Shown: in pieces, positions 7,183 to 61,962 of the stretch
Position numbering within the stretch: position 1 is the first letter of the stretch
Layout of the letters: every line of letters begins with the position of its first letter
Origin: Mesostigma viride
Taxonomy: Eukaryota; Streptophyta; Mesostigmatophyceae; Mesostigmatales; Mesostigmataceae
Assembly (NCBI GenBank): GCA_009746045.1
Contig: RPFO01000097.1
Coordinates: 121,001-185,000, forward strand
Direction: 5' to 3'
Length of the DNA stretch: 64,000 nucleotides
Translations under genes and position numbers: made by a program
The notes under the pieces: model-generated
The model's database searches: none
Seen by the model: only the letters and a program-made list of their open reading frames with translations
What the model was told of the DNA's origin: nothing

Positions 7183-10100
7183 CCCATACACGTAGCCCCC
7201 CCGTGTGTTTGTCCGCCCCCGGTGGCTGCCCTCCCCTGCCCTCCTGTCCGATGGCGGCTTGGCAAACTCCACTTCCAGCACCTTGCCTGCATGAATGAAG
7301 GGGGGGTAAGGCAGTTTTCAAACATAAGAAACGGGCTGCACCATGGCAAACAAGGCTTCCAGCATTTTGCCTGCAGAGATGGCGCGGGAGCAAGGAGGCG
7401 TGGCTGCCACAGGGCGTTGCTGCGACATTTCCATGCCAGTTGTGCAGTTGATAGTATCTGTCGGACAATCAAGTGTTCGATAAAGTAAAAGCAGTACAGC
7501 CGTGATGCTATTAGAGCAGGTACTTTAAATAAGTGTGAGCTAAAGTAAAAGCAGTACAGCCGTGATGCTATTAGAGCAGGTACTTTAAATAAGTGTGAGA
7601 TAAAGTAAAAGCAGTACAGCCGTGATGCTATTAGAGCAGGTACTTTAAGTAAGTGTGAGATAAAGTAAAAGCAGTACAGCCGTGATGCTATTATGGCAAA
7701 TGCTTTGCCATTCTAACTAGTGCCCTGGCCCCTGCGTATTATCCATGAGACAAGCAGCGCAGGCCTGGACTGTGGAAGACCAGGACCATGGAAGCCCTCT
7801 TGTACAGTAGTGGTACATGGTATGGTGAAGGGGTGATGGTATAGTGACCTATTATACCTGCGAAACTGTTAAAATACGCACACTGCACCATCCCTCTTCT
7901 TACGCACGCTGCAACAATTCTCTGTGAGGATGTCTCTCCCTTCTCTTGCCACCATCTGCTGCCATCAGCCAACCCAAACACTGGCCCCCATATTGCTGCC
8001 ATCAGCCAACCCAAACTCTGGCCTCCATATTGCTGCCATCAGCAGCCCATTACAACATGTACTTGCCTATACTTTCCCAAAGTTCCACACTAGATAGTCA
8101 AACCCCACACATCAACCATCTCCTCGCCTTTCATCGCCTCCATCCCCCCCCCCCCCCCCCCCCCCCCCCCACTCCATCCACTACCTGCTCATTAAGGATG
8201 CACGCTGCTCCTACACCCAGTTTCCTTTCCCTTCGCCTCCATTAGGAAACTGAGACTGCTACGTGTAAGGCAAAACCACATCCACCACGCGGCTCCTTCC
8301 CCTTGGTTGCCTTGACTACATGACAGCACATGGACTACTGATACGATACCACAGCTATAGCAGCACCCACCGCCCATCTCCTTGCCCTTAACCGCCTGTA
8401 CTGAGATCAAGACATACAACTGGTATCGATTGAGTCATGCTCCATTAAGGAAAACAGCACCCACCGTCCAACTCCTTGCCCTTCATCGCCTCCACCGCCG
8501 CCTCCGCCTCCGCGCGCTCCTCGTAGTGCACGAACCCGAAGTCCTTGCGCGGCGTGCCTGGCTTGGACGGCAGCACACTCTTGACCACTTTGCCAAAGGG
8601 GCGGAACACCTCGGCCAAGCGCTCCTCGTCCCACGATTCGGGCAGGTTCTTGACGTAGACAATCTTAACCTGGCGACCGCACACATGCCCATGACAAGGA
8701 GCGAAGGTAAGGGGTCAGGGTCGAGAGTCCAGTGCTTGGTTGGGAGAGGAAGGTTTTCGAAGTAGACAATCTTAACCTGGCGACCTCACACATAAATTGG
8801 CATTGTGATTTGAGGTAGAGGAAATGGTAAGAATCAGCAGGTTGAATATCCCAAGACTCAACAGGTTGAATATCCCACAACAGGTTGAATATCCCAAGAC
8901 TCAACAGGTTGAATATCCCAAGACTCAGCAGGTTGAATATCCCAAGACTCAACAGGTTGAATATCCCAAGACTCAGCAGGTTGAATATCCCAAGACTCAG
9001 CAGGTTGAATATCCCAAGACTCAGCAGGTTGAATATCCCAAGACTCAACAGGTTGAATATCCCAAGACTCAGCAGGTTGAATATCCCAAGACTCAGCAGG
9101 TTGAATATCCCAAGACTCAACAGGTTGAATATCCCACTACAGGTTGAATATTCCAAGACTCAGGAAAGATTCATGACATGAATGGAAACACCTAGAAAAC
9201 AATGAAACCCCTTCCAAGAAACCTGAAACGCTTTCAAAAGAGCCTGTAAAAACTGTTTATAAAGCCTTAAACACCTCCAAGAAAAGCTCCGACTGCACCT
9301 GAGGATCCGTCTCATTTTTCCAGTATGCTGATCTTTCAACTTTTCATACCTTCAATCCTTTCAACTTTTCATCATTCCACCCTTCCACCCTTCCGACCTT
9401 CCACCCTTCCACCCTTCCACCCTTCCACCCTTCCACCCTTCCACCCTTCCACCCTTCCACCCTTCCACCCTTCCACCCTTCCACCCTTCCACCCTTCCAC
9501 CCTTCCACCCTTCCACCCTTCCACCCTTCCACCCTTCCACCCTTCCACCCTTCCACCCTTCCACCCTTCCACCCTTCCACCCTTCCACCCTTCCACCTTT
9601 TCTACTCTTCCAAGAATGAACAGACCTCATACCAACCCTACATAGACAAGGCATCCTTTGCAGTGCCCACCTTGAGCCACAAGGCTCATCTTAGACAAGA
9701 ACAAGCATCATCGAAAAGAGAGTGAAAAGCCATCCGGCGCGCTCACCTGCGCCTGCGCCTGTGGGTCGGGCTCCGCCCTCGGCTCGGCAAAGTTCACCGT
9801 CGGGATGTTACCGTCCAGCTTGAAGGTGGACTTGGTGTACACCTTGCGCGCCGCCTCGGCGCACGAGTGGTTGTAGAACTCCACGAACGCAAAGCCGCGG
9901 TTTTTCGTCTCGCACGCGGGGTCCTGTGGTGTTGCATGTGAAGGGGACGGTAGGAAACATAAATAAATACTACTATAAAATGATAAACAAGTAGAGTGCG
10001 GTGACGATAGTCAAAATTCATTGGGTTATTCGTCTCACACGTGGGGTCCTGCATGGAAGAGGGGGCAAACAGAGGACCGGGAAGGAGCAGAACAACGCAT

Positions 10101-12968
10101 CCATGCCTACTCGAGTACGGGCACCCACTTTGACCAGGTCAAACGGTTGCATGCCCACCGTGTCCTTGGACAAGACCGCGCACAGGCGCCAGCAGTTACT
10201 TGGGTTCTAGCTCCTTGCCAGGGGCCTAGTTCGTTGCTAGAGGCCTTTACTGTGAGGCAAGACCCACCTTGACCAGGTTGAGGTGCTCGATGCCCACGGT
10301 GTCCTTGGACAAGATCGCAAGCAGTTCTTCATGGGAGAAGGACTTTGGGACGTTGCCGATGAAGAGGCGGTTCTTGGTCTGCGCGACATTGACCCGCACC
10401 TTGGTGTCCTGCGGTAGGTGAGACAGACGCCCACGAATACCCGTGAAAAACAGGGTGGGTTAGTAGCAAGGAAGGGTAAGTAGAAAGGGAGGGTTAGTAG
10501 CAAGGAAGGGTAAGTAGAAAGGGAGGTTTCGTAGCAAGGAAGGGTTAGCAAAAGGGAGGTTTAGTAGCAAGGAAGGGTTAGTACAAAGGGAGGGTTAGTA
10601 GAAAGGAAGGGTAAGTAGAAAGCGAGGGTTAGTAGCAAGGAAGGACCCGTGAAAACAAGGAACCGTTAGCAGCACTTGCTTTGGTGTCCTGCGGCAATTG
10701 GATACCAGGGATGGTAATCACGGATGACAAGGAACGGCACTGCTATTGTGTCCTGACGCGTGCGATCAGAACACCCATAATGTCAGGGAATAATGAATAA
10801 CAGTTATTGGAATGCCAACAAATTTCAGGATGAAGATGAAGATAAAGATAAAGAAAGCAATACTGCATTCATGCATGGAAGAATGAATGAATGAATGAAT
10901 GAGGGAGGGAGGGAGGGAGGGAGGGAGGGAGGGAGGGAGGGAGGGAGGGAGGAGGAGGAGGGAGGGAGGGAGGGAGGGAGGAGGGAGGGAGGGAGGAGGG
11001 AGGAGGGAGGGAGGGAGGGAGGGGGAGGGAGGGAGGGAGGGAGGGAGGGAGGAGGGAGGAGGGAGGGAGGGAGGGAGGGAGGGAGGGAGGAGGGAGGGAG
11101 GGGGAGGGAGGGAAGGAGGGAGGGAGGGAGGGAGGAGGGAGGAGGGAGGGAGGGAGGGAGGGAGGGAGGGAGGGAGGGAGGAGGGAGGAGGGAGGGAGGG
11201 AGGAGGGAGGGAGGGAGGGAGGGAGGGAGGGAGGGAGGGAGGGAGGGAGGGAGGGAGGGAGGAGGGAGGGAGGGAGGGAGGGAGGGAGGAAGGAGGGAGG
11301 GAGGGAGGAGGAGGGAGGGAGGAGGGAGGGAGGAGGGAGGGAGGGAGGGAGGGAGGGAAGGAAGGAAGGAAGGAACGAAGGAAGGAACGGATGAACGAAC
11401 GAATCAATGAACGAATGAATGAATGAACGAAGGAAGGAAGGAACGAATGAAGATAGAACGAACGAACGAACGAACGAACGAACGAAGGAACGAACGAACG
11501 GACGTGCGTGCGTGCGTACGTAGGGAGGGACGTACGTACGTACGTACGTACGTACGGACATACGGACGGACATACGTACGTACGGTACGTACGTACGTAC
11601 GGACGAATGGACGAATGGACGAATGGACGAATGGGCGAATGGGCGAACAGACGAACGGACGAACGGACGAACGGACGAACGGACGAACGGACGATTGGAC
11701 GATTGGACGAATGGACGAACGGACGAACGGACGAACGGACGAACGGACGAACGGAAGAACAGACGAACGGACGAACGGACGAACGGACGAACAGACGAAT
11801 GGACGACTGGACAAATGCACGAATGGACGAATGGACGACTGGACAAATGCACGAACGAATGAATGTATAAATGAATGAACGCACGGATGATTGGCAGGGT
11901 GCCAGCAAGCTCATGCGGGACTGTGCCTGATGCACCTCACCACCATGCGCACGATCGAGCATCCATGTGCATGGACGCTTGGCGGAACACACTAGACGCA
12001 TGGGCGACTGGACGACGGGACGAATGGACGACTGGACGACTGGACGACTGGACGAATGGACAAATGCACGAATGGACGAATGGACGAATGGACGACTGGA
12101 CAGATGCACGAACGAATGAATGTATAAATGAATGAACGCACGGATGACTGGCAGGGTGCCAGCAAGCTCATGCGGGACTGTGCCTGATGCACCTCACCAT
12201 CATGCGCAGGATCGAGCATGCATGTGCATGGACGCTTGGCGGAACACACTAGACGCATGGACACTCGGCCACACTCACCTTGATCTCTACATCCTTGCAA
12301 GCCTCAACGGCCTTGGCAGCGTCCTCCTTAGTACGGAAGCCGACGAACGCGAAGCCTTTACCCAATCCGGTCGTCGCATCTTTTACCATGCGGATCTGCG
12401 CGACGATTGCGAGAAGTGCGGGGCAAGGCGGAGAACAAGTGAATGCGCGGCATACGTAAGGGCTGCGTCAGGCGATCTCATTTAGGATAAGCATCTGACG
12501 CAAATCGCTACAGGTATTCACATGACACAGGCCGCGTCAGCATACCTCGACAATTTCGCCCAAGCGCTCGAACACCTTGCGGAGGTCTTCTTCGCACACG
12601 CTGTGCGGAAGGCTCCCCACGAACACCTCGGCGCCCGCTGGGGGCCTTTGCATTGGATCCAGCACAGGAGCTGGGCGAGTACTGTGGTCATCCATCCTCG
12701 CTTCCCCTTCTTCGGGCTCTTCGGCATCCTCTGGCGGAGCAGCTGCCATGGCCGCATCCTGGACATCCCTGACTGCAACATCACCTTGCGTATCCATTGC
12801 GTCCCGGGTCATATCATCGCTTGATTGTGCCATGTGCGGATCTCCCGTCTCTCCTTCCGCGTTCGTCATCCCGCGTCGGCAGACTTGCCTCCCGGCAACA
12901 GCACGATTGATATGGCTGTCCTGATCAACCGCAGTCTTCCGGAATGTAACACCGGTGAAGATGGCCAC
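7183..12968 (-). CDS. hnRNP Q/R (SYNCRIP)-like three-RRM RNA-binding protein, six exons placed
   Basis: The product is predicted to bind RNA through three RRMs, as in metazoan hnRNP Q/R and plant LIF2-type proteins. Exons, all GT-AG and phase-consistent: 12546-12968, 12279-12395, 10268-10408, 9747-9923, 8465-8669, 7183-7286 (389 aa so far). RRM1 is ~114-180 ([11 protein letters not shown]1 KGFAFVGF). RRM2 is ~191-275 ([29 protein letters not shown]), with the NRLFIG(N/S)(V/I)PKS wording typical of the Q/R group. RRM3 is ~287-363 ([31 protein letters not shown]), again matching the VLFVRNL..VFAKP pattern. The N-terminus is acidic ([17 protein letters not shown]). Met1 at 12968 is the furthest start; Met34 or Met46 are alternatives. 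After exon 6 ([12 protein letters not shown]) the C-terminus is uncertain (see 6584-6676). Introns carry many decayed copies of the exon edges. Confidence 0.85.
7345..7376 (-). repeat. Echo of hnRNP exon 6 acceptor
   Basis: On the minus strand, CTGCAGGCAAAATGCTGGAAG is followed by CCTTGTTTGCCA. This mirrors the true acceptor and exon start (TGCAG|GCAAGGTGCTGGAAG..GAGTTTGCCAAG) at 7290-7250. It retains a CAG acceptor but the coding content is damaged. Confidence 0.75.
7482..7697. repeat. 60-bp tandem repeat, ~3.6 copies
   Basis: A unit running AAAGTAAAAGCAGTACAGCC..GTGATGCTATTAGAGCAGG..TACTTTAA(A/G)TAAGTGTGAG repeats nearly perfectly. It lies in the intron between exons 5 and 6 of the RRM gene. 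No ORF. Confidence 0.95.
8110..8464 (-). repeat. Echoes of hnRNP exon 5 donor region
   Basis: The true exon 5 end reads, on the minus strand, GATGAAGGGCAAGGAGTTGG ACG|GTGGGTGCTG. Decayed versions follow inside the intron: GGTTAAGGGCAAGGAGATGG then GCGGTGGGTGCTGC (8400-8366), then weaker GAGGCGAAGGG/GAGGCGATGAAAGGCGAGGAG forms near 8240 and 8135. A long poly-C run (8148-8170) lies between them. Confidence 0.7.
8757..8795 (-). repeat. Echo of hnRNP exon 5 acceptor
   Basis: TCGCCAG|GTTAAGATTGTCTAC is the real acceptor (8675-8655). About 105 bp upstream in the intron lies the near-copy TGTGAGGTCGCCAG|GTTAAGATTGTCTACTTCG, a second plausible AG with a damaged exon. Confidence 0.8.
8833..9160. repeat. 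24-bp minisatellite, ~13 copies
   Basis: The unit CAGGTTGAATATCCCAAGACTCA(A/G) is repeated with two variants at one position. The period of 24 keeps all frames open (VEYPKTQQ repeats). It lies in the intron between exons 4 and 5 of the RRM gene. Confidence 0.95.
9376..9600. repeat. 9-bp minisatellite (CCACCCTTC)n, ~25 copies
   Basis: This is an almost perfect CACCCTTCC array in the same intron. ORFs reading FHPSTLPP or GWKGGRVE are artefacts of the 9-bp period. Confidence 0.95.
10024..10190 (-). repeat. Echoes of hnRNP exon 4 acceptor and exon 3 donor
   Basis: Plus-strand TTCGTCTCACACGTGGGGTCCTGCATGG (10028-10055) copies the exon 4 start at 9905-9930. TTGACCAGGTCAAACGGTTGC then ATGCCCACCGTGTCCTTGGA (10131-10171) copies exon 3's end at 10268-10310. 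Both lie in the intron between these exons and are decayed. Confidence 0.75.
10440..10650. repeat. Degenerate GTTAGTAGCAAGGAAGGG tandem repeat
   Basis: About nine imperfect units of GTTAGTA(G/C)(C/A)AA(G)GGAAGGG with AGTAGAAAGGGAGG variants lie immediately upstream (in gene sense) of exon 3. No coding signal. Confidence 0.8.
10886..11862. repeat. Compound simple-sequence array in hnRNP intron
   Basis: Blocks run (GAAT)n, (GGGA)n with GGA triplet interruptions (10902-11358), (GGAA)n, (GAAC/GAAT)n, (CGTA)n with GGAC, then (GGACGAAT/GGACGAAC)n. Adjacent motifs differ by one or two bases. The array is almost 1 kb and accounts for all the long low-complexity ORFs on both strands here. Confidence 0.95.
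11864..12262. repeat. Direct duplication of a ~140-bp segment, ~247 bp apart
   Basis: GAATGAATGTATAAATGAATG through GGAACACACTAGACGCATGG occurs at 11864-12002 and again at 12115-12260 with few differences, the second copy ending just before the exon 2 donor. The duplicated unit includes part of the microsatellite. Confidence 0.9.
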
Positions 12969-15621: not shown

Positions 15622-16316
15622 GTGGATGGATGGATGGATGGATGGATGGATGGATGGATGGATGGATGGATGGATGGATGGATGGATGGATGGATGGATG
15701 GATGGATGGATGGATGGATGGATGGATGGATGGATGGATGGATGGATGGATGGATGGATGGATGGATGGATGGATGGATGGATGGATGGATGGATGGATG
15801 GATGGATGGATGGATGGATGGATGGATGGATGGATGGATGGATGGATGGATGGATGGATGGATGGATGGATGGATGGATGGATGGATGGATGGATGGATG
15901 GATGGATGGATGGATGGATGGATGGATGGATGCATGGATGGATGGATGGATGGATGGATGGATGGATGGATGGATGGATGGATGCATGGATGCATGGATG
16001 CATGGATGCATGGATGCATGGATGCATGGATGCATGGATGGATGGATGGATGGATGGATGGATGGATGGATGGATGGATGCATGGATGCATGGATGCATG
16101 GATGCATGGATGCATGGATGCATGGATGCATGGATGCATGGATGCATGGATGCATGGATGCATGGATGCATGGATGCATGGATGCATGGATGCATGGATG
16201 CATGGATGCATGGATGCATGGATGCATGGATGCATGGATGCATGGATGCATGGATGCATGGATGCATGGATGCATGGATGCATGGATGCATGGATGCATG
16301 GATGCATGGATGCATG
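15622..16316. repeat. ~700-bp (GGAT)n array with (GGATGCAT)n higher-order block
   Basis: Pure GGAT units (15622-15930) give way to alternating GGATGCAT octamers in three blocks (one unit near 15931, 15983-16037, 16079-16316). GCATGC/ATGCAT sites arise at each octamer. The ORFs of 230-295 aa on both strands are frame-open artefacts of the repeat. Confidence 0.97.
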
Positions 16317-20650: not shown

Positions 20651-20666
20651 TCTCGTAGCACTTGCA

Positions 20667-23053: not shown

Positions 23054-23055
23054 CC

Positions 23056-28029: not shown

Positions 28030-28859
28030 ATGGTGAAACTTAAGAAAGAAATGAAAGGAGGAAGCAAGGTAAGCAGGTTGATGGAAACCTAGTTCCCCTT
28101 AGGCCGGCCGGTTTTTAACCACCTTCAGGTCATTGTCCTGAATTGAGCCATTTACTAAACATGCTACAGCGGGGCTTCTTTCTAACCGCTCTAAGCCATA
28201 TGGATCTTCTGTCTTGCAGGTAAGGGCAAAGCCCCTTACGGAGGAGGAGCGCCTCGTTCGCGCAGAGATGCTTGCCCTACAGGTACTTTCCCTGCCATTC
28301 TTTAAATTTCTGCACGTTTTGTACTTTGAAACTCAGGATCGGGGTCATGTCAAACAGTTTGCCACGCACCATCGCCTGTTTTGGCAATATTCTTACCGCA
28401 ATAGGCATCGCGCCCAATTTTGAGGAGCAGCTGTAGTATTCAACACACACAAAGCGGCGCCCCCCCTTCCCGATATTTCTTCGGTAACCATCTTCGTATA
28501 GCCTGGGCGGGGATGCCCAATTGCAGGGAAATAGCCAACGTGTAAATCGTTGGTAGTCCACCCTGGGCGGCAACGGTTTCCTTTTGTTTGCTTCGGCCTG
28601 GTGCTTCTATATTGTTGTTCATCTCACTTATGAAGCCGCAAGCGGTGGGTAGGACGCAAGCTTTTCACTTTCATCCTATCAGGTCAGCTCGACCTCGCCT
28701 GGTACACATTGGACAAGGCAAACGAGGCAAACAACTTCTCTGGACAAGGCAAACTAACAACTTTTCTGGACAAGGCAAACAGCTTTTCCCGAGGTATGCC
28801 CCCAACCACGCTCCACCTACCTACCCCAACCACGCTCCACCTGACTACCTGACTACCCA

Positions 28860-28925
<66 letters not shown>

Positions 28926-40900: not shown

Positions 40901-42646
40901 CATCCCTGATTTATTCACAGCAAGAAGATATTGCTATTTTTAGTATCGTGTTTGCGGGTCTAGCTTCTTCACCTCTGCAGCTGCGATCCAGTTTCGCTGG
41001 CATGGGTTCATGGCAGTGTTGGGTGGCTGTTTGGACGGGAACTTGTCTTTTTTGGGCTGTGAAACGAATTTGTCGACTCTTTGAGTCCCCGCATGGCCCC
41101 TACCCCCCTGCTTGTGCGCGGCGGTTATTTTTTTTTCTTTAAATAATAAATTTATTATTTTTTGAGAAGGCTCGCGCCGCCCGGTGCTCCCTCAAATCTC
41201 CTCTTTGTTTCCCCCCCTCCAAGCTTATAATAAACTATATATTTTTAAGTATTATCTGCCATCACCCTGCGGCAGCTTGATGACTCGGGTGATCCGATTT
41301 AGTTTTAAGGTTGATTAATTTTCTTTCTGCACACCTGCTGTTTGTCACCCTCGTGCTGCTGGATGACAAACGCAACCTTGACTTAAGCGTCGGTTTCTCA
41401 AACCCCAGCACTACCACCACCGTGTGTTTTCCTTTATGGTCTTCTTCCCGGCACCCTCGTGCAGCTGGATGAGAAAGGCAACCCGATTTCGGAATGGGAC
41501 TACCTCAACTACTTCTTCACGCGGCATAACAAAGTGAGTTCAAACAAATAACAACGTGAGTTCAAACGCATAACATAGTGAGCTCAAACGCATAAGCAAG
41601 TTAGTTCAAATGGGTAACAAGGTGAGTTTAAAAGCGTAACAAAGCGAGTTCAAACACCTCGTTACTATACCATGCTCAAGCCTTTGTTTATGTTACTGCA
41701 CCACGCAACACCTGCCTTGCCCCCCCCACCACGACCACCACATGCCCATGTCCCCAGGTGGCCCTGGACAAACTGGCGATCGAAAAGGAGTTCAAGCGGC
41801 TGTCGGCAGAGAACGAGGACCTGCGGCAGATCCTCAAGGAATACCTCGATGGGACTTCCGTCAACGCGGACGTCATTAATGACCCAAACAACCCGCTTTT
41901 TGTACGTGGCCGCGCGAATCGAGGAGAAAACAGAAAGAGGACACATGCTTTGTACATTGCCGCGAGGGAAGGAAAAAAGAAAAAGAAAATAAGAGGAAAC
42001 GAGGGAAGTAGAGGGAAACTGGAAACAAGGGAAACGGGGGGGGGGGGGGGCTGTTTGTGCTTGGATGCGAGGAAAAAAACGATTAGGAAAGAGAACAGGA
42101 GAGAAGATAGGAAACAGAGCAGAGACAGGGCGAGCTCTTTGTACAATGAACAAGCCTTTTCTTTTCGTGAAGTGAGCACTTTGTACAGTGTGGCAGCAAT
42201 GACAAAGAACTGGAAGGGGAACTGAAGGAGAGAATGGGAATGGATCTCGTTTTGGCATATTGTGGGAAGCCATGTTCCGACATGCTAGGCAATGGATGCC
42301 TATGCCTACTCACTCTTTAACAAGAATACCAATCGCCCACCCTTCCCCTTCCCCCCCACCCCCCACCCCCCACCCCTCACCCCCCACCCCCCTTACCCCC
42401 ACGTTCCAGTAACTGGATTTGTTATCTCACCTCGTTTGCTGCATGGCTCCTCTGCGCCCTGCCCCTCCCCTCCGTGCCTCACCCCCTGCGCCTCGTCAGA
42501 TCGTCAACCAGCGGTTACAGAAGACGCTCACCGGCACCATGGGGCGCACGGCGGGCGCCCCCATCACTCAGGCACCGCCAGGTTCCCCTGCGCGGCAACG
42601 GGGCGCCCCCGTGCTTGTGCTGCAGCACAACCGGTCGGCATCGTGA
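28030..42646 (+). CDS. DRC2: Dynein regulatory complex subunit 2 (CCDC65/FAP250), 14 exons
   Basis: A nexin-dynein regulatory complex subunit that ties outer doublets and controls inner-arm dynein in motile flagella. Exons: 28030-28068, 28220-28282, 28941-29078, 29771-29876, 33020-33102, 33592-33786, 34075-34319, 35313-35379, 36136-36189, 37220-37315, 38723-38989, 41465-41533, 41758-41901, 42500-42646. All join in phase, giving 570 aa, near the family size. Motifs: KPLTEEERL (18-26), [19 protein letters not shown] (62-80), [20 protein letters not shown] (87-106), [20 protein letters not shown] (117-136), then long coiled coils (residues ~145-370), [16 protein letters not shown] (459-474) and the conserved [17 protein letters not shown] (~501-517). 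Exon 11 uses a GC donor (TACGCG|GCAAGT). Exon 1 ([13 protein letters not shown]) is the least certain. Introns are swollen by simple repeats and splice-junction echoes. Confidence 0.92.
28867..28940. repeat. (CT)n and poly-C tract at DRC2 exon 3 acceptor
   Basis: About 28 CT units followed by a ~16-C run form the polypyrimidine tract directly before the CAG of exon 3. This is an extreme but usable 3' splice site context. Confidence 0.95.
29085..29330 (+). repeat. Echoes of DRC2 exon 3 donor
   Basis: The true junction CGGCTGGCCAAG|GTAACC..GCCCGCAAGATATCATGG is followed at ~29105 by GTTGCTGGCCAATGTAATGG and GCCCGCAAGACATCATTG. At 29285-29328 comes CATGACCAGAGGCGCAAGGT and ACGGCGGCTGGCCGAAGTAA. 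Confidence 0.8.
29930..30110 (+). repeat. Echoes of DRC2 exon 4 donor
   Basis: The real end GACCTGGAGGATG|GTGCGTGGC recurs as GGCCGGGAGGATGGTGTGTG (29936-29955) and GGCCTGGAGGACGGTGCATG (30084-30103), both keeping a GT. Confidence 0.8.
30500..32930 (+). repeat. ~95-bp minisatellite, ~25 copies, derived from DRC2 exon 5 acceptor
   Basis: Each unit contains CCCCTCGTCACCATCCGAGG ACCAGTTTCAC. The genuine acceptor at 33000-33035 reads CCCCTCGTCGCCAG|CCGAGGACCAGTTCCAG. The flanking CCGTTCACTCTACC is also shared. Unit lengths are 94-96 bp and the array is highly homogeneous. In the main array the AG has become AT, removing the splice site. One extra copy at ~32928 keeps CGCAG|CCGAGGACCAGTTCC. ORFs reading [20 protein letters not shown] are repeat artefacts. 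Confidence 0.93.
33312..33500 (+). repeat. Echoes of DRC2 exon 6 acceptor
   Basis: TGCCAGCTGCCGGGCGAGGA then TTTTGGCGGCCAACC (33317-33351) copies the real CGCCAG|CTGCTGGGCGAGGA GTTTGCGGCCAACC at 33588. A weaker AAGCTGCTGGGCAATGAGG lies at 33488. Confidence 0.8.
33848..33900 (+). repeat. Echo of DRC2 exon 6 donor
   Basis: GATGCGCGCCAGGAGTGTTG then AGTCACAGCTGGAGGAGATG|AAGGTG copies GACGCGCGGCAGGAGTTTGA..CAGCGCGAGGAGATCAAG|GTG just upstream. Confidence 0.8.
34380..34760 (+). repeat. Echoes of DRC2 exon 7 donor
   Basis: The junction GCGCACTGGCGGACCAAGAT CGCGTCCAACGG|GTGGGTGG recurs at 34390-34432 (CACACTGGCGGACCAAGATC, GTTCAACGGGTGGGTGG), ~34627 and ~34730 (CACACTGGCGCACCAGGGTC). Each copy is more decayed. 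GTTGCAGCACCTTGTGGCG repeats lie between them. Confidence 0.85.
36845..37219 (+). repeat. Echoes of DRC2 exon 10 acceptor
   Basis: The real CTGCCTACGTGCGTGTGCGT GCAG|CAACTATCGCTCAACAGCCGCGCC is preceded by TGTGGGTGCGTGCAGCAAC (36857) and by CTGCCTGTGTGCATGCATCA GCTATGGCTCAACAGCCGCGC (37097-37138). Confidence 0.8.
37621..38606. repeat. ~985-bp (TCCC)n then (GCCC)n array in DRC2 intron 10
   Basis: Tetranucleotide CCCT with scattered CCT triplets runs from 37621 to ~38527, then switches cleanly to CCCG units until 38606. The long PSLPPSLPP and EGGREGGR ORFs are artefacts. Confidence 0.97.
39080..39710 (+). repeat. Echoes of DRC2 exon 11 donor
   Basis: After the true CAGCAGCTACGCG|GCAAGT come CAGCAGCTACGCG|GTACGG (39090-39108), GAGCAGTTACGTG|GTAAAG (39588-39606) and GGCAGGTACGTG|GTGCGG (39692-39710). 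The echoes carry GT where the in-frame donor has GC. Confidence 0.8.
39800..40330. repeat. Duplicated GC-rich palindromic segment in DRC2 intron 11
   Basis: CCGCC/GGATCC-rich inverted motifs, CACTTTAAAGTG (39872-39883), and a duplicated CATGTGCAGCGTGGGTAACA ACAACAAC..TTGGCCAGCTC block (39975-40060 and 40190-40250) with (AAC)n runs. No gene. Confidence 0.6.
40365..40873. repeat. Compound (ATTC)-(ACTC)-(ACCC)-(ATTC) microsatellite
   Basis: Short ATTC, then ~16 ACTC units, then ~78 ACCC units (to ~40755), then ~29 ATTC units. Motifs step by one base at each boundary. It lies in DRC2 intron 11. Confidence 0.97.
41340..41660 (+). repeat. Echoes flanking DRC2 exon 12 (acceptor and donor sides)
   Basis: Acceptor side: CACCCTCGTGCTGCTGGATG ACAAACGCAACC (41348-41379) copies CACCCTCGTGCAG|CTGGATGAGAAAGGCAACC. 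Donor side: the junction AACAAA|GTGAGTTCAAAC repeats five more times at ~22-bp spacing to 41657 (AACGTGAGTTCAAAC, ATAGTGAGCTCAAAC, and so on), giving consecutive GTGAGT motifs. Confidence 0.85.
41900..42200 (+). repeat. Echoes of DRC2 exon 13 donor
   Basis: The junction GCTTTTT|GTACGTGGCCGCGCG recurs as GCTTTGTACATTGCCGCGAG (41948), CTCTTTGTACAATG (42136) and CACTTTGTACAGTGTGGCAG (42178). Confidence 0.65.
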
Positions 42647-42986
42647 TTGGGCTACGTACACAGGACCTGGCCAGACGTGGCGATTCTGCACCTAATTACG
42701 CGGATCGCTGTCGAGGCCATGGGCTTTATTTGGGCAGCATAAATCTCCTCAAAAGAGTGGTTGCCTGTTGCCTTGTCAAGGCTGTCTTGGGTTGCGCGAA
42801 GATCGTTGACCGAGGTAGAAATTTTCCCATTTATTCATTTATTGTCACGTGCCCCGGATGGGAGAGTCACGGGTACAGACTCTTGAGGTAGTTTGTCCAT
42901 GACGGTGGCAGCTACCGGTGCCCTTCCATGGCAATCTGCAGCAAAGGTAACTTCTTTCGAGTTTGCGTTTACGCTATATTTATCTC

Positions 42987-52727: not shown

Positions 52728-53171
52728 ATGGCTGCCGTGGCTGCTGTCTCTGCCCCAGTGGCGTTCGCCTCCGCCAAGGTCTCGGCCAAGGCTTCCTTCG
52801 GCGCACCAAAGGCCGTTGTGTCTAAGAGCCGTGTTGGGGCGGTTTTCGGCGTGAAGCAGGTCTACAGCACTGTGTGCATGGCCAAGTACAAGGTCACCCT
52901 CCAGACCCCCGATGGTGAGAAGACCATTGACTGCGCTGATGATGTTTACATCCTGGACGCTGCTGAGGAGGCCGGCATTGACCTGCCATACTCCTGCCGC
53001 GCTGGTGCCTGCTCATCCTGCGCCGGCAAGGTCGTGAAGGGCACGGTCGACCAGTCCGACCAGAGCTTCCTTGATGACGACCAGATGGGCAACGGCTTCG
53101 TCCTGACCTGCGTCGCCTACCCCACCTCCAACGTGACCGTCAAGACCCACCAGGAGGAGTCCCTCTATTAA
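52728..53171 (+). CDS. PETF: Chloroplast [2Fe-2S] ferredoxin precursor (PetF type)
   Basis: This is a soluble stromal one-electron carrier passing electrons from photosystem I to FNR and other acceptors. The intronless frame of 147 codons has an S/A/V/K-rich transit peptide ([20 protein letters not shown]..; ~50 residues) ending near VYSTVCM, and a mature domain from ~[12 protein letters not shown]. Cluster ligands are C90, C95 and C98 (CRAGACSSC) plus C128 ([10 protein letters not shown]), the plant-type spacing. The C-terminus HQEESLY matches algal/plant ferredoxins. I chose the Met at 52728 over an upstream in-frame Met (52575), which would add 51 residues of non-transit-like sequence. The mature length (~97) is normal. 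The lack of introns contrasts with neighbouring genes. Confidence 0.96.
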
Positions 53172-53932: not shown

Positions 53933-56900
53933 TCATAGCTTACTCACAATTGGCATGTTAGGGGGCTTTCCATCCTCAGGTTTGCTGCCTGATAAGCTCA
54001 ACGGTGTACTGTGCGCCATTTCGGCCGATCCAGGAAAGGCCAATCCGATGGCCTGAATTATCAAGTCGCGGACTTCCGCCTTCTTCACTTTCCCCAAGGA
54101 CGTGCATGGCAGAGGCTCGGCTTGTGCCACCAGCACTTTAGGTACCTTGAACCTGCACGGTGCATGTTTACCATGGGTTGCATGGCACGAAAGCAAGTGC
54201 ACATAACCAAATCAAACTCACTTGTCAGCAGCCTGGTATATCAGTGGCGCAACCAGCACAAATTTTGATGAGTAGGGTAGTTAGGACTTTTCTAGACTAG
54301 CTAGATTAGAAGTTAGGTTAGTTCGATTACGCGGCTTCTTCCACCCCACCCAGCCATCAAGGAATATGTGCTACATGATCTCCCAACGGAGGCATGTTAT
54401 AATTTAATTTAATTTAACTTTAACCAGCACAAACCTGACTTGCAAAAAACCATAAAGCAAACACCTAAGGCATCCTGCCGACATTAGCCCCTATAACTCT
54501 ATGAGACGTCCCCATGTTTCCCAACCCCATGTGGTTGCACTATGGGGGTATCCAAGGTGTGGTAAAGGATGCCAAACAATGGCATGGGCTTGAACCACGC
54601 AGCCCTATGCCACACGCCACGTAACTAACACGTGCATTGACCGCCACGCATTTGTTGAAGTGAGCACGGCAAACTAATTAGCGCACCAGTCACCACGCTA
54701 CCAAGTCAAGCATGAGCTTGTGCTTTGATATAAAGCCACTATAGTAGGATGACACAGGCGGGCAGTAGCGAGTTTGCCATTGCGAGCGGGCAATAATGGG
54801 AGGAGGTCTTAACATAGAAAAAGTGGTGCTGGAAAGAAGCAGTGCAAACAGCAGGCCAATCTCATGCACACTCCACGAAGCTAGCCAAGTAGCCACGTGT
54901 GGCAGCATCACCTGATGTAGTCGCAGTGGCAAACAGCAAATAGACAATCATGTAAATCAGCAAATGTTCGTTTCCGATCTCGCTGCGGTCACGTTAACCC
55001 GACACATGGCACCCAACACATGGCACGCAACACACGGCACCCAACAAGCTACAGCACAGCATGTCCAGGATGTGGTGCCTCCATTAACCAAGGGCAGCCT
55101 GCTCGCACTTGGACACGAGACAGACAATAACCAGCGCAGGCACAAAAATGGTGGCAGGCACGCGCAGGCACAAGGGAGCCGCACCTACGCCGATTGGCAA
55201 CGCACCTAGATAACTTGGCGACATGCCGGCAATGTTCGCGGAGGTCCTCCGCGCTGATCTCTCCGCTTGCCACCCCCATCCTGCCGTCTCCTCCTCCGAA
55301 TCCACCACAACCCCCCGCATCTCCCTCGCCGATAACAATCCCGGCATCCATCCCGTTACTGACAGCGTCCCCCAATGCCCCAAGCCCCCCTGGCCCTGCC
55401 GGCCGCCACCGCCATCCGGGCGCCAGCACAATGAGCGCCGCCACGGCCTCCCCTAGCCTAGCATCCGGCACACCCACCACCGCGGCCGCCGCGACCCCCG
55501 GGTGGCCCACCAGCGCCCCCTCGACCTCAACCGCACGCACGCCCTCGGATCCAGAACGTATCACGTCGGACCGCCGGCCAAACAGCCACAGCTGGCCATG
55601 GCCGTCAATCCTGCCGACATCGCCCGTGTCCAGCCACCCCGGCCCGGGGGGCCCCGGGGACACTGGGGGCGGGACTGTCGAGCCCGCCCCGGCTCCGTGC
55701 ACGTCCGCCCCCCCCCAGTACCCATCCATCACGTGGGGCCCTCGGGTCCACACGTTTCCCCAGGAGGTCCCTCCCTGGCCAGGGGCGACCCCGGCGGGGA
55801 CGGACGGCAGCCCCAACGCCTCGTCCGCGGTGTCGGTCGCTATGAATAGCTCGACGTGCGGCGGCGGCCGGCCCACGCAGGTGCCCAGCCCGGCCTGCAA
55901 CTGGTCGATACCCTCCCCGGTGGACCCGGATGGTGGCAGCGGCCCTGTACACCTGCAGGGGTGACACTGGGCGCAAGCACCGTTGGATTCGCCAGCGTTC
56001 ACCAAGCCAGCCTTAAATATGCCACCGGTTAAGGAGCGGTCGGGGGCGCTTGGGCTGCAGCGCGCGTACAGCCAGCCGCTTGGCATGGGTGTTGTTCGGG
56101 AGGGGCGTGTTGCAAGGCCGCCGGACGTCTGTGGCGTGAGGCAGTAGCAAGGGGCGGACTCGAGTCGGAAGGTGAGGGACGAGGCGGCTTCGGTGAGACC
56201 TGGGGGAAGAGGGGCCAGGGATGGGGTTTGTGGAGGACAGGGAGAAAACGGGTGAGGAGAAAATGGCAGACGGGGGAAGAGGAAACATGCAAGCCAGTCA
56301 GCGAATATGTGTAGAATTCTGGCCTGCGCTGGTTGTGTCATTGATATTCAGCAGTGAGCATAGGGAGCCAACACTGGACTATTTCGACTCCCCAACGGGA
56401 GCATTAATTAATTAATTAATTAATTACGACTAGACTAGTACAGAGTCTGCCAAAGTGGCAACCGATACTATGGCATGCAACATATAGTACACACACATAT
56501 AGTACACATAGACTAGTACAGAGTCTGCCTACGCGCCAACCGATACTATGGCGTGCAACATATAGGTGTTGCTGGCTCGGAGGGTGTTGCTGGCTCGGAG
56601 GGTGTTGCTGGCTCCGAGGGTATTGCTGGCTCGGAGGGCAGATTGCTGGCCCGCAGCGCTGCAAACGGCGCACACACGATTGCCGACGCACAATCCCTGG
56701 GCCAGGGACATTGGACGAGAATGGGACGTGCCCTCACGCTGCCTGTGCCCGGTATCTATTACTAGCACCCGCCATCCATGTCGCCATAACGATGCGCCCA
56801 CAACCATGCGCCAAGCGTTAGTCAAGGATATTAAATCAACGAGACGTCCAGCGCGGGCCAGAAGTCTGGAGAATCCGGGTCCACCCCACGGCTACCTTGA

Positions 56901-59900
56901 TCCACCCGTCCCAGACGCGATCGCCCACCGTGGGCCGAGGAGAGGAGAGGGGCGCGTGGGGGAGGTGGAGTGTCCGCTCATGCGTGGGCCGAGGAGATGC
57001 AGGCAAACGATTGACTTATAAAAAACCACAATTGGATCTCCCCTAAAAACAGGCAGCAGGCCAAGGCCTTCAGCCCCCGCCTGAAGACACTCACCGTAGG
57101 CCGATGAGAGGAACGCGCACGGGAAGTGGCGCGCCATCGAGCGCGTCAGATCCTGCGACAGCGCCGCGCCGCCCACCAGGATCATGCGCACACTAACCAC
57201 CGCGGCCGGACTTTCCCGCCTAGTTTCCCGCGGCGCTGCCACCCCCTTTATGTACGCTGCCACGTTGCCTCCTGCGTCAATCATCATTCCCTCCAGCATC
57301 GAGCTCACCCCCCCTCCCCTTTCCCTTGGGACGGCCACCTCATTACCCCCCCGGAGCATTACCCCCTCGCGTACTCCCGTCAACATTCCTGCGGCAGCGT
57401 CACTTTGAGTGGCTGCTGGCCCCCCGCTAGCGCTCCTTTCCCCTGGAATCTGTACCCTAGGCTCCGCACCACCAATGACCCGCCGTGACGATAGCTCGGC
57501 TGCGTCAGCTGCAGCCTTGGCCGCCGTCTCCGTCGCCTCCGCCGCTGACATCAGCGCCACCAGGTCCACCAGCATCGCCGGCACCGCAATGAAGCTGGTG
57601 GCCGCGTGGGAGCGCAGGGCACCCAGCAAGGCCACCGGCGTGGGCTGGGGCAGGAACACGTGGCGGGCGCCAGCTGCCAGCATGGCGAGCGCCGAGGATA
57701 TTCCGCCGATGTGGAACAGGGGCGCCGTGTGCACGTAGACCTGTGACGTTTTGGTTCAAGGAAATCGACAGAACCAGAAGGAAATCGACATGAACAGTTA
57801 CGGTTAACAGGATTAATGAGTCAGCTGCGAGGCCAAGAATGTAGTTTGGACCAGCCAGCTGCGAGCATGCAGATATATACCAGAAATCAGTGTGCACGTA
57901 GACCGGCGACTTCATGGTTTGTGAAAAAGGAAATGCAATGAAAGACAAGTTGCAGTGACAGCGGTTATCAAACAGCGGCGCCGTTTGCACGTATACACGT
58001 GACATAAAATCGTATTTGATAGAAATGATATAAAAAATCTATATTTTATTTTAATAGTATAACTGTTACAATAATTTGGAATAATAAATTGCAATTTATT
58101 GTAGTAAAAAAAAAAGTTTTTAAAAACCAAAGATTTTTTGTTCGGTCACCTTACAGGGCACTTGCTTGCACCAAACCTACATCGCCAGTACCAAGAGACC
58201 ACATATGTGCACACCGTGCACCCCCCCCCCCAATAGCGCGCAAGAGACAGCGCGGTCACCCCCTCCCCCTTAGCGAGCAAGAGACAGCGCGGTCAGCCCC
58301 CCCCGTAGCGAGCGAGAGACAGCGCGGTCAGCCCCCCCCCCCGTAGCGCGCAAGAGACAGCGCGGTCAGCCCCCCCCCGTAGCGCGCAAGAGACAGCGCG
58401 GTCAGCCCCCCCCCGTAGCGAGCAAGAGACAGCGCGGTCACCCCCTCCCCCCTTAGCGAGCAAGAGACAGCGCGGTCAGCCCCCCCCGTAGCGAGCAAGA
58501 GACAGCGCGGTCAGCCCCCCCCCGTAGCGAGCGAGAGACAGCGCGGTCAGCCCCCCCGTAGCGAGCGAGAGACAGCGCGGTCAGCCCCCCCCGTAGCGAG
58601 CGAGAGACAGCGCGCGCGCACCAAGAGACCCACACATGGTCGGCACCAAGAGGTCACAAACGCGTACATCGTCGGCAGAATAGCCAAGCGCGTCGATCTT
58701 GGCGCGGGACTGCACGTGGAGCGCGCGGTGGCTGAGGACGGCGCCCTTGGGCTCCTTGCCCGAGGACCCTGGATGAAGCCACGAGCGAGCCGCAAGCAAT
58801 GGACATAGTTAATAGTAGTATGTGATCTATTATATAACATACCTATGACATAGTTAATATGTGATCTATTTTGTATGATGCCAGTCAATGAGTGCAGGGT
58901 CGCATGCACTAGGCTACTCTGGTATGGTAGACTAGGCTATTTAGAATGGTAGACTAGGCTATTTAGAATGGTAGACTAGGCTATTTAGTATGGTAGACTA
59001 GGCTATTTAGAATGGTAGACTAGGCTATTTAGTATGGTAGACTAGGCTACTCTAGTATGGTAGACTAGGCTATTTAGAATGGTAGACTATGCTATTTAGA
59101 ATGGTAGACTAGGCTATTTAGTATTGTAGACTAGGCAATTTAGAATGGTAGACTAGGCTGTTTAGTATGGTAGACTAGGTTACTCTGGTATGGTAGACTA
59201 GGCTACTTAGTATGGTAGACTAGGCTATTTAGAATGGTAGACTAGGCTATTTAGAATGGTAGACTAGGCTATTTAGTATGGTAGAAGCAGACATGTAGGT
59301 CTCGTGTTTCGTGTGACTAGCTGCTCAAGAAATGCATATATACAGCTACCTAGAAAAACTACCCGCCTGAAGTCAAGCCGGTGAGCGCACAGGCGACATG
59401 ACCAAGTGTGATAGTGCGCTTGAAACACTCACAAAGCAGAGGGGGAGATAAATAGTCATCCCCGCTGGGTACATCATCCCCGCTGGGTACATCACACCCG
59501 TGCATGTAATAGGAAACCAAACTTCGTTAACCACTCACCTGACGTGAAGCATATCAGTGCAGTGCCCTTGGGGTTGGACCGCAGCTCAAACTTGGCCAGG
59601 GACCGTGGGCCGCCCGCCGCGCCCCGGCACAGGAGCTCCTCGTAGGCCACGACGCGAGGGGGTCGCAAACTTTCATGTGTCCTTGTTTGGAGTTGCGGCT
59701 GGGTTGAAATCAGCGGGTGGCTGAGTTCATCGCCAGCATGTGCGGCACCATTCTCGGTATCGGTGATCGCATCTGGGGACGTGGGGGTGGTGACAGGTGG
59801 CGCGCCCTCACGCAGCAGTACGGCGTGGCGGAGGCCAGCACATGCGGACAGCAGGCCACCCACCCAGGGCTCGCAGGACTCGTCGGCGAGGACCACGATG

Positions 59901-61962
59901 GGGGACAGCCGCAGCGCGGCTGATTCCGCCTCAGCGTAGCTCTGGATACAGGATTATTCCGACCCCCGTGCCCCACCTCGTATCCACACATGCACCCCCC
60001 CCCAAGATGCAGCACCCAAGCGCCCACCCTTCCACCCCCCGATGCACCCACGCAAACCCTACTTCACCCATCCAAACTACCCCCCCCCCCCTCCCCCCAG
60101 GGTGCCCCTCCCCCCCAGGGTGGCCAACAACAGGCATCCGCAATGGACCAGTAACCGTTAGTGAGCGATGCACCGAGCAGTCATCAGTAGAGAAAGGGAG
60201 CGCCTTGATACTTGGTTGCTCATCGCGGAATCGCCATCTGGTTTCAACGGGGGGTTCTAACGGGAGCCGTGCGGAAATGGATGGGCATGTGTGATACGAC
60301 GGATCTGCAAAGGGAAACCAAGGATCATGCCATGCGTGACTCATTAATTAATCAACTAAAAGCACGTATGACTCATAGGAAATTACATAAGATGCTTAGG
60401 TGCTCAGGGATGTCACGGACCATGCCACAGACTTAGACCTATTACATAAGATGCTTAGGTGCTCAGGGATGTCACGGACCATGCCACAGACTTAGACCTA
60501 TTACATAACATGCTTAGGTGCTCAGGGATGTCACGGACCATGCCACAGACTTAGACCTATTACATAAGATGCTTAGGTGCTCAGGGATGTCACGGACCAT
60601 TCCACAGACTTAGACCTCCAACACCCCCCCACCCCACCCATGCTCCCCCTCATTCAGCACATGACCATAAGGGGTTCCTTGCCTTGGAGGCTTTGTCTAA
60701 ACAAAGTAATCCACTACTTTGGCTTAAGATAAATCCCCTTCTTTCCTTTTCTCTATCGAAATGTCCCCCTTTTCCTGGTTTCGTGCAAATGTCCCAATTC
60801 ACATCACACATTGCTCGAGCGGACATACTAAGTAGAGGATCAGCACACGTGGGGGCCAACAGGCACCGATGTGAGTAGATCATCTCTCCGGGTTCCCTTC
60901 TCTCTGATGGTACCCTTATCTCTACAATAAATCTCGCCCTTTTCCTCGTTTCGTACGAATGTCTGCATCTCCCTGGGTGCTGACGTAACTCACCCAGCGC
61001 CAGTTGAGGGGGGCCACAATGCCTCCAGCTGCCGCCACCCCCAGAAAGCACTCAAAGAACAGGTCACTGCAGCATGCCGGCACACGCACCCACCCACCGC
61101 CCCAAGAGAAGCACTCAAAGAACAGGTCACTGCAGCATGCCGGCACATGCGCCCACCCACCGCCCCAAGAAAAGCACTCAATTAAAAGGTCACTGCAGCA
61201 TGCCGGCACACGCGCCCACCCACCGCGCCAAGAAAGCACTCAATGAACAGGTCACTGCAGCATGCCAGCACACACGCCCACCCACCACGCCCGTCCTCGC
61301 AAAAGTGGCACAGGTAAAGACCTCAACCACTCGCGGCATTTACAACATACCAACACTAAGTTGTTGTTTGCATGGACGGGTAGGAAGACTGCCATAGATA
61401 CCCCCTTGGCAATTTAACTTGGCATTATGGTTGGCATTTAATTGTTGGTAGACGAAAATTCCATTGGATGGCACGGTTAACGCGGCAGGTGACACGTAGG
61501 CCTGTACGCGACGTGAATTCCTCGATAACTTAGGCTACACACTCTATAACGCATACTCGTACGCCGTCTCACACATTCTGCAAACAGTGCACAGCGCTGG
61601 CATTGCCGAGAAAAGCAAAATACACGGAAAATGCCCGGGAATCGCGGCCCGTCGGCCAACTTTTCACGAGGTAAATTAAAGTAGCTTCTTTAGAGTGACG
61701 ACACCGAGTTCTTGTTCTGACAACAAGGGAGTTTGTGAGATGCCCACCTATTCTTAGCCGCGATGCAAACTCTATCCCCTGGAGAGACACCTAGGACGGC
61801 TCGCAAGGCGGTCGCGCAAGCTGCGACCCGTTGGCGAAACTCTCTTCCCGATCGCCGCCGATGCCCGCAAATGGTCATCTCAGCACAGCCCTCCCTGAAG
61901 GCGGACGAGAACAACGGAGAGGCAATGTGCTCCGGAAGACCATGCATTTTCTCTGTATGCAC
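53933..61962 (-). CDS. 2-succinylbenzoate-CoA ligase (AAE14/MenE-like), 7 exons, PTS1
   Basis: An adenylate-forming enzyme that activates o-succinylbenzoate with ATP and CoA in phylloquinone synthesis. Exons: 61748-61962, 60994-61066, 59539-59941, 58668-58768, 57095-57740, 55206-56199, 53933-54152. All are GT-AG and phase-consistent, giving 883 aa. Evidence: GREFRQRVAA (N-term), NSDLFFECFLGVAAAGGIVA PLNWRW, VLADESC, ICFTSG/SSGKEPKGAVLSHRA (P-loop ~229-241, one residue longer than usual), YVHTAPLFHIGGISSALAML (266-285), FIAVPAMLVDL, SAYGLTEAASSLTF (477-490), LDTGDVGRIDGHGQLWLFGR (669-688), and TSLGKVKKAEV with the catalytic-type Lys832. This wording is closest to plant AAE14. It is longer than the usual ~560 aa through A/G/P-rich insertions in exons 3, 5 and 6. 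The C-terminus is -SKL, a peroxisomal signal. The start may be Met1 or Met6. Confidence 0.88.
54263..54415 (+). mobile_element. Retroelement 3' fragment in ligase intron 6
   Basis: GATGAGTAGGGTAGTTAGGA..TCTAGACTAG..CTACATGAT then CTCC-CAAC-GGAG (54380-54391) and GGCATGTTATAATTTAATTT. It is the same 3' unit as the inverted pair at 17241-17838, opposite in orientation to the host gene. Confidence 0.75.
56300..56425 (+). mobile_element. Retroelement 3' fragment in ligase intron 5
   Basis: TTCTGGCCTGCGCTGGTTGT (family-A-like, minus sense) followed by CTCCC-CAAC-GGGAG (56388-56401) and a (TTAA)n tail. The hairpin form equals that of the 138-bp SINE-like insert at 44363. Confidence 0.65.
56430..56645. 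repeat. Short duplications in ligase intron 5
   Basis: GACTAGTACAGAGTCTGCC..GCAACCGATACTATGGC occurs twice (56432 and 56512). An 18-bp TGTTGCTGGCTCGGAGGG unit repeats four to five times at 56567-56640. Confidence 0.85.
57855..58010 (-). repeat. Echoes of ligase exon 5 acceptor
   Basis: Plus strand GGCGCCGTGTGCACGTAGAC|CTGTGACG is the true exon/intron edge. GTGTGCACGTAGACCGGCGA (57891-57910) and GGCGCCGTTTGCACGTATAC ACGTGACAT (57976-58004) are decayed copies in the intron. Confidence 0.75.
58235..58618. repeat. ~35-bp minisatellite, ~11 copies
   Basis: The unit GTAGCGAGC(A/G)AGAGACAGCGC GGTCAGCCCCCCC varies in C-run length (4-10). It lies in ligase intron 4, ending just before exon 4's donor side. 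Minus-strand ALSLARYGG ORFs are artefacts. Confidence 0.95.
58915..59285. repeat. 22-bp minisatellite TGGTAGACTAGGCTATTTAG(A/T)A
   Basis: About 16 tandem units with A/T alternation and occasional ACTCTGG variants, in ligase intron 3. No ORF. Confidence 0.95.
60388..60618. repeat. 57-bp tandem repeat, 4 copies
   Basis: The unit starts ATTACATAAGATGCTTAGGT and includes GATGTCACGGACCATGCCAC AGACTTAGACCT. Near-identical copies begin at ~60383, 60440, 60497 and 60554, in ligase intron 2. Confidence 0.95.
61061..61290 (-). repeat. 63-bp tandem echoes of ligase exon 2 acceptor, 4 copies
   Basis: Each unit (minus strand) carries GCCGGCATGCTGCAG|TGACCT..GAGTGCTT followed by TTGGGGCGGTGGGTGGG. The copy joining GTGGCGGCAGCTGG is exon 2. 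The other three lie in intron 1 with intact CAG acceptors. Spacing is 63, 63 and 62 bp, so at least two upstream acceptors would read in frame. Confidence 0.9.

What the first reader, a model, noticed from the sequence alone, without database searches (positions are those of the whole stretch)
7183..61300. Splice-junction echoes: introns grown from tandem copies of the adjacent exon edge
In all three intron-rich genes, introns contain decayed repeats of the flanking exon-intron junction, always on the side of the copied junction. hnRNP-like gene: exon 6 acceptor (7345), exon 5 donor (8366 and further), exon 5 acceptor (8757), exon 4 acceptor (10028), exon 3 donor (10131). DRC2: exon 3, 4, 6, 7, 11, 12 and 13 donors; exon 5, 6, 10 and 12 acceptors. 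Ligase: exon 2 and exon 5 acceptors. More than 15 independent cases in one window suggest a systematic process (replication slippage, or template switching at splice sites or R-loops) that lengthens introns while creating decoy sites. I know of no name for this pattern.
Basis: seen in the sequence. Interest (0 to 1): 0.88.

Follow-up and report, generated by a model that had tools for sequence, protein, structure and literature searches.

The report
Duplicated exon edges inside algal introns
In three genes of the green alga Mesostigma viride, many introns carry old, decaying tandem copies of their own exon edge and splice site, which suggests that short duplications across that border lengthened the introns and left spare splice sites behind; whether the border is specially targeted is still open.

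Summary
The window is Mesostigma viride: three spliced proteins match its deposited gene models over every aligned residue. Of 50 exon-intron junctions, 19 have a same-strand copy of exon edge plus splice site in their own intron; the same queries score as high in 0 of 1200 other introns and in 0 of 50 own introns reverse-complemented.

Best explanation: short tandem duplications (median spacing about 110 bp) that span the junction. The outermost splice site stays in use, so the protein is unchanged; the inner copy becomes intron and decays. Three junctions seeded minisatellites (25 x 96, 6 x 22, 4 x 63 bp).

Junction targeting is only partly supported. Counting arrays, interior windows have copies as often as junctions (ratio 1.1). 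Counting each repeat family once, 20 of 39 include a junction, against 22-24% in a uniform neutral simulation. One flagged window; the genome could not be searched.

Novelty: a new variant of intron lengthening by tandem duplication. A junction-crossing duplication is in print for one potato gene, where it made a new intron (PMC4974935).

The parts
28030..42649 (+). DRC2 (dynein regulatory complex subunit 2) gene, 14 exons, 13 introns
   Evidence: model; introns 4-13 equal deposited protein P0001; PDB relative 7ju4 chain 2
4653..12863 (-). hnRNP Q/R-like three-RRM gene, 8 exons, 7 introns
   Evidence: equal to deposited protein P0121; RRM_1
53990..61066 (-). AMP-binding ligase gene; 6 exons and 5 introns used here
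   Evidence: equal to deposited protein P0209 over my residues 13-793; AMP-binding
29280..29323 (+). echo of DRC2 exon 3 donor (a closer copy, offset 41, lies in the short array 29069-29146)
   Evidence: score 148, offset 241
29913..29960 (+). echo of DRC2 exon 4 donor; a further copy at 30075-30129
   Evidence: score 108, offsets 73 and 219
30484..32901 (+). 96-bp minisatellite, 25 copies, whose unit carries the DRC2 exon 5 acceptor junction
33314..33352 (+). echo of DRC2 exon 6 acceptor; a second one at offset 100
   Evidence: score 140, offset 268
33853..33898 (+). echo of DRC2 exon 6 donor
   Evidence: score 166, offset 106; intron flank also similar, p 0.002
34383..34433 (+). echo of DRC2 exon 7 donor, with an intact GTGGGT site; further copies at offsets 339 and 438
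   Evidence: score 210, offset 102
36296..36329 (+). echo of DRC2 exon 9 donor
   Evidence: score 102, offset 123
37052..37138 (+). echo of DRC2 exon 10 acceptor, nearly head to tail with the true junction copy at 37148-37242; further copies at offsets 216 and 347
   Evidence: 95 aligned columns, 77% identity, offset 96 at the pair's start; score 142; ladder
39067..39111 (+). echo of DRC2 exon 11 donor; the true donor is GC, the echo has GT
   Evidence: score 117, offset 113
41344..41377 (+). echo of DRC2 exon 12 acceptor; a second one at offset 189
   Evidence: score 134, offset 106
41524..41655 (+). 22-bp minisatellite, 6 copies, seeded by the DRC2 exon 12 donor
10123..10168 (-). echo of hnRNP exon 3 donor
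   Evidence: score 140, offset 139
10024..10051 (-). echo of hnRNP exon 4 acceptor
   Evidence: score 113, offset 125
8748..8793 (-). echo of hnRNP exon 5 acceptor
   Evidence: score 185, offset 107
8357..8403 (-). echo of hnRNP exon 5 donor; further copies at offsets 179 and 352
   Evidence: score 154, offset 94
7338..7390 (-). echo of hnRNP exon 6 acceptor
   Evidence: score 121, offset 84
   Evidence: score 102, offset 94; place
57959..58005 (-). echo of the ligase acceptor at 57740; a second one at offset 163
   Evidence: score 127, offset 256
56922..56972 (-). echo of ligase exon 4 donor (57095), weak
   Evidence: score 101, offset 166
61038..61286 (-). 63-bp minisatellite, 4 copies, seeded by the acceptor at 61066 (an acceptor that the deposited model does not use)
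   Evidence: score 225

Best explanation
Short tandem duplications (median spacing about 110 bp) arose across exon-intron junctions. The outermost splice site still serves, so the mRNA and protein do not change and the duplication is tolerated. The inner copy (exon edge, splice site, a piece of intron) becomes intron and mutates freely. Later junction duplications push older copies inward, and a few were amplified into minisatellites. Shown: the copies, their direct orientation, side and spacing, and decay without coding constraint. Inferred: that only the outer site is used (it agrees with the deposited models; no RNA was seen), that the whole unit was duplicated in the older cases, and the lesion (repair of staggered breaks, or template switching). 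By family count junctions are hit more often than a uniform process predicts; that excess is a lead whose cause is unknown.
For: 19 of 50 junctions against 0 of 1200 and 0 of 50 controls. Same side only: 18 of 46 against 0 of 40 at score 70. Offsets 84-139 bp in 12 of 17, median 110 of 18. Some pairs are near head to tail: 37052-37138 against 37148-37242; exon 7 donor with 53 exon and 55 intron nt at offset 102. Intron flank beyond the splice consensus is also similar in 6 of 18 (uncorrected p below 0.05; Fisher 1.4e-6). Exon-echo mismatch by codon position 0.168, 0.144, 0.245: free decay of the echo, silent change in the exon. Offsets show no preference for multiples of three: 13, 15, 10 of 38. 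The nearest copy is closer to the exon than the mean of the farther ones in 6 of 8 ladders.
Against: In 12 of 18 the intron flank shows no significant similarity, so duplication of the whole unit is shown in a minority. In 2 of 8 ladders the nearest copy is not the most alike. 31 of 50 junctions have no echo at the threshold. No RNA data, no second strain. A process without junction preference may be enough (ratio 1.1 with arrays counted).
Confidence: 0.8

Rival explanations
1. No junction preference at all: these genes gain short tandem duplications everywhere; junction copies stand out because the exon copy is conserved and because the window was picked for them.
For: Without array masking interior windows have copies as often as junctions (352 of 1060 against 19 of 50, ratio 1.1; also 268 of 720), and the simulated ratio under uniform duplication is 0.9-1.2. 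19 of 39 repeat families do not touch a junction. The window was flagged for this pattern.
Against: By family, junctions hold 51% against 22-24% simulated, at most 43% in 96 runs; real shares at scores 90, 110 and 120 are 20 of 42, 16 of 35 and 14 of 32. With arrays masked the ratio is 3.6 to 10.9, simulated maximum 3.5 in 120 runs. The simulation has no array growth.
Confidence: 0.45
2. A mutational process tied to splice junctions (template switching, R-loops, or nicks around transcribed exon edges) makes about 100-bp duplications there, and introns grow from their edges.
For: The family excess; the spacing peak near 100 bp; ladders with the youngest copy nearest in 6 of 8; TRF-masked windows hit in 31% when they span a junction, 22% in intron within 100 nt of one, 14% in intron interior, 5% in exon interior, 3% between genes.
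Against: Ratio 1.1 with arrays counted. Uneven between genes: junction families DRC2 11, hnRNP 7, ligase 2, interior families 3, 9, 7. Ladders with the youngest nearest also follow from random duplication across a junction. No breakpoint is young enough to read.
Confidence: 0.27
3. The echoes are relics of duplicated alternative exons.
For: Some keep strong splice sites. One, DRC2 exon 3, aligns loosely over 137 of 138 exon nt at 60% identity.
Against: Each echo carries one exon edge with one splice site, as a rule 11-57 nt of exon. Mismatches at codon positions 1 and 2 are 0.168 and 0.144, so no coding constraint; spacing is not in multiples of three.
Confidence: 0.04
4. The introns themselves arose by tandem duplication of exon sequence (the AGGT model of intron gain).
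For: The model is in print (PMC4974935 and PMC2891723, passages).
Against: It predicts copies of the far exon at each intron end. My copies carry their own splice site and lie beside the junction that they copy; the far-side test on neighbouring introns gave 0 of 40 at score 70. The exact geometry of the model (the far exon of the same intron at each end) was not scored apart.
Confidence: 0.03
5. Chance or low-complexity similarity.
For: One named case, DRC2 exon 13 donor, is of this kind (score 57).
Against: 0 of 1200 mismatched and 0 of 50 reverse-complement comparisons reach 100.
Confidence: 0.01

Closest known systems
Tandem duplication across an intron-exon boundary in the potato RdRp gene (PMC4974935; abstract and passages seen)
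   Same: A direct duplication spans the border of an intron and its exon and carries the splice signals with it.
   Different: There one event made a new intron. Here 19 of 50 junctions carry echoes, the intron number is unchanged, introns became longer, and some copies were amplified.
Intron elongation by direct repeats of about 50 bp in Caenorhabditis F-box genes (PMC8665587; passages and one section seen)
   Same: Introns lengthened by tandem repeats.
   Different: What I saw of that paper does not link the repeats to exon edges or splice sites.
Intron gain by tandem duplication of coding sequence, Drosophila (PMC2891723; passages seen)
   Same: Tandem duplication of exon sequence, one copy ending up as intron.
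   Different: There a proto-splice site inside an exon makes a new intron; here an existing junction is copied.
Tandem duplications from repair of breaks with protruding ends (PMC5730883; passages seen)
   Same: A known source of direct tandem duplications, given there as an explanation for new ones in genomes.
   Different: Shown in mouse stem cells at cut sites; nothing in the passages ties it to splice junctions.
Introners (PMC9860276; search listing only)
   Same: A systematic source of intron sequence.
   Different: Introners are one element copied into many genes; here each echo matches its own junction and 0 of 1200 other introns.

Membership tests
Local tandem duplication / minisatellite growth | Direct orientation | tested here: met
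   19 of 50 forward, 0 of 50 reverse-complement
Local tandem duplication / minisatellite growth | Copy lies next to its source and nowhere else | tested here: met
   0 of 1200 in other introns; offsets 84-139 bp in 12 of 17
Local tandem duplication / minisatellite growth | Whole unit repeated head to tail | tested here: inconclusive
   Intron flank similar in 6 of 18, not significant in 12 of 18; near head to tail at 37052-37242
Intron gain by tandem duplication (AGGT model) | Exon sequence copied to the far side rather than beside its own junction | tested here: not met
   0 of 40 on neighbouring introns at score 70, 2 of 40 at 65; the far exon of the same intron was not scored apart
Introners | Near-identical sequence in introns of unrelated genes | tested here: not met
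   0 of 1200 at score 100 within the window's 25 introns; genome-wide not testable here
Duplicated alternative exons | Whole exon with both splice sites | tested here: not met
   Echoes carry one edge; DRC2 exon 3 is a possible exception at 60% identity
Duplicated alternative exons | Coding constraint on the copy | tested here: not met
   Codon-position mismatch 0.168, 0.144, 0.245
Duplicated alternative exons | Use in mRNA | not testable with these tools
   No RNA reads at hand; the deposited protein models do not use the echoes where they cover the junctions

The most novel reading that the evidence does not exclude
In Mesostigma viride introns grow mainly from their edges: a mutational process tied to the splice junction duplicates about 100 bp across it again and again, so that a sizeable share of intron sequence is fossil exon edge, youngest copy next to the exon, with intact decoy splice sites that the spliceosome must ignore.
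Probability: 0.27. Interest if true: 0.78.

Novelty: new variant of a known kind. Interest (0 to 1): 0.55.

Why it matters
In the M. viride genome paper intron length is laid to repetitive elements (PMC6947507, section seen). Here part of the intron sequence can be traced to its source, the neighbouring exon edge, and the conserved exon gives a fixed reference for neutral decay inside the intron. Eleven of 30 non-array echoes carry splice sites as good as the lower quartile of real ones, 73-347 nt inside introns: a natural test set for how the right site is chosen. If the junction excess holds genome-wide, splice junctions would be duplication hotspots, a testable link between transcription or splicing and mutation.

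Tried and rejected
BLAST self-comparison of the gene regions first failed on gap costs; repeated it missed several echoes that Smith-Waterman finds, so I used it only for near head-to-tail examples.

The first simulations used 60 nt of exon and gave junction shares of about 15%. They undercount junction-spanning events and were replaced; the higher, less favourable share is the one that I use. From I keep the counts on the real sequence at other thresholds.

Counts with all tandem repeats masked flatter the junctions, because TRF also masks two-copy interior duplications; counts with none masked let one array count many times. I give all four maskings and lean on families.

Long-query hits with 36-60% identity, such as those in ligase introns 4 and 5, are not counted: the null that should calibrate them ended in a script error and was not repeated. 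The ladders that I cite come, where second and later copies needed only 85; at 85 to 90 a few of 1200 mismatched comparisons also score (4 at 80, 1 at 90).

Rejected for failing the threshold: DRC2 exon 13 donor (57) and DRC2 exon 10 donor (87). A 33-bp array next to the DRC2 exon 4 acceptor (29674-29769) looked junction-derived by eye and is in my notes, but that acceptor scores 53, so I do not claim it. Splicing intermediates as the source were set aside by reasoning, without a call, because the echoes keep intron bases.

Full report
What the window is. A DRC2 protein spliced from the window contains, residue for residue, a deposited 463-aa Mesostigma viride protein. The hnRNP and ligase proteins match deposited M. 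viride proteins without mismatch over all aligned residues: my residues 11-354 of 354, and 13-793 of 793. M. viride is a streptophyte green alga. Its published genome has a mean intron of 1141.9 bp, with repeats in 30.1% of intron space (PMC6947507; passages, one section). My 25 introns hold 24,642 nt.

Gene models. I placed exons by hand and checked frame and splice sites. Twenty-two of 25 introns agree with the deposited proteins: DRC2 4-13, hnRNP 1-7, ligase 1-5. DRC2 introns 1-3 have an open frame and canonical sites, but the deposited model starts inside exon 4. One donor, DRC2 exon 11, is GC.

The observation. For each junction I searched 40 nt of exon edge plus 20 nt of intron in its own intron, simple repeats masked. 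At score 100, 19 of 50 junctions have a copy; 0 of 1200 comparisons with other introns and 0 of 50 with the reverse-complemented own intron do. Exon edges alone reach 70 in the adjoining intron in 18 of 46 and in the intron on the far side of the same exon in 0 of 40 (2 of 40 at 65).

Anatomy. Offsets between true junction and echo cluster: 12 of 17 lie between 84 and 139 bp, median 110 over 18. They do not favour multiples of three (13, 15, 10 of 38). An echo holds part of the exon edge, the splice site and, where not too decayed, intron flank: beyond the splice consensus the flank is similar in 6 of 18 (Fisher p 1.4e-6) and not significantly so in 12. Some pairs are near head to tail. Several junctions have ladders: DRC2 exon 7 donor (102, 339, 438), DRC2 exon 10 acceptor (104, 216, 347), hnRNP exon 5 donor (94, 179, 352). 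The nearest copy is closer to the exon than the mean of the farther ones in 6 of 8 ladders; two arrays were left out of that count. Three minisatellites carry a junction in their unit: 96 bp x 25 (DRC2 exon 5 acceptor), 22 bp x 6 (DRC2 exon 12 donor), 63 bp x 4 (ligase acceptor at 61066, not in the deposited model).

Decay and decoys. Mismatches between exon and echo at codon positions 1, 2 and 3 are 0.168, 0.144 and 0.245 over the 18 best echoes. Free decay of the echo plus silent change in the exon predicts that; a coding echo would not. Of 38 echoes, 8 are units of one array, capped at 8; of the other 30, 23 keep GT or AG and 11 score at or above the lower quartile of true sites. The GC donor of exon 11 has an echo with GT.

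Is the junction special? It depends on how arrays are counted (targets of 500 nt). No array masking: 352 of 1060 interior pseudo-junctions against 19 of 50 real ones, ratio 1.1 (bootstrap 0.6-3.0). Arrays of 5 or more copies masked: 74 of 750 against 18 of 50, 3.6 (1.8-7.8). Three or more: 34 of 672, 7.1 (3.7-13.2). All TRF calls, which also hides two-copy interior duplications: 21 of 637, 10.9 (5.4-28.4). Counting each repeat family once, 20 of 39 include a junction (DRC2 11, hnRNP 7, ligase 2) and 19 do not (3, 9, 7); at scores 90, 110 and 120 the counts are 20 and 22, 16 and 19, 14 and 18. A simulation of uniform tandem duplication with exon-internal events purged, exons conserved and introns decaying gives a junction share of 22-24% (about 6 families against 19), at most 43% in 96 runs, and a real-to-pseudo ratio of 0.9-1.2, at most 3.5 in 120 runs. 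So the unmasked ratio agrees with the uniform model, while the family count is about threefold above it. The simulation leaves out array growth, and the window was chosen for this pattern. I take the excess as a lead.

Mechanism. Shown: copied junctions, direct orientation, same side, spacing near 100 bp, decay without coding constraint, amplification in three cases. Inferred: the cell uses the outermost sites, which explains both tolerance and same-side geometry. Not testable here: the lesion. Repair of breaks with protruding ends is a published source of tandem duplications (PMC5730883, passages).

Literature. Ten searches were made. The nearest paper found is a potato RdRp intron made by a tandem duplication that crosses an intron-exon boundary (PMC4974935, abstract and passages). 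Intron elongation by direct repeats of about 50 bp is reported for Caenorhabditis F-box genes (PMC8665587). In these listings and passages I saw no report of repeated exon-edge copies as a general feature of introns. The library holds open papers only, and most of those listed were not opened; of the Chlamydomonas comparative paper (PMC8226300) I saw 12 passages.

Limits. One 64-kb window, three genes, no RNA, no second strain. The tool for the window's own genome did not complete.

Noticed in passing
21374-27462: A non-LTR (LINE-like) retroelement: an open frame of 1508 aa with endonuclease (Exo_endo_phos) and reverse transcriptase (RVT_1) domains, preceded by an overlapping 559-aa frame.
   Followed up: partly
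52728-53171: A ferredoxin gene (Fer2 domain) in one open frame of 147 codons.
   Followed up: partly
38990-38991: DRC2 intron 11 starts with GC (GCAAGT); its echo 113 nt inside the intron has GT, as if the true donor changed after the duplication.
   Followed up: partly
61067-61504: The deposited ligase model P0209 (1349 aa) joins a 51-residue stretch at 61504-61352 and skips the acceptor at 61066 that the 63-bp array copies; the deposited model may be wrong or fused there.
   Followed up: partly
10901-11374, 37622-38603, 15623-16316, 40364-40874: Very long 4- to 12-bp arrays (GAGG, CCCT, TGGATGGA, CACCCACCCACC); the first, second and fourth lie inside introns.
   Followed up: no
43728-46171 and 48207-49573: Related open frames on both strands whose translations begin with similar words (KHLSTQRSLA, KRLSTQRSLA), perhaps first frames of retroelement copies; seen by eye.
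   Followed up: no
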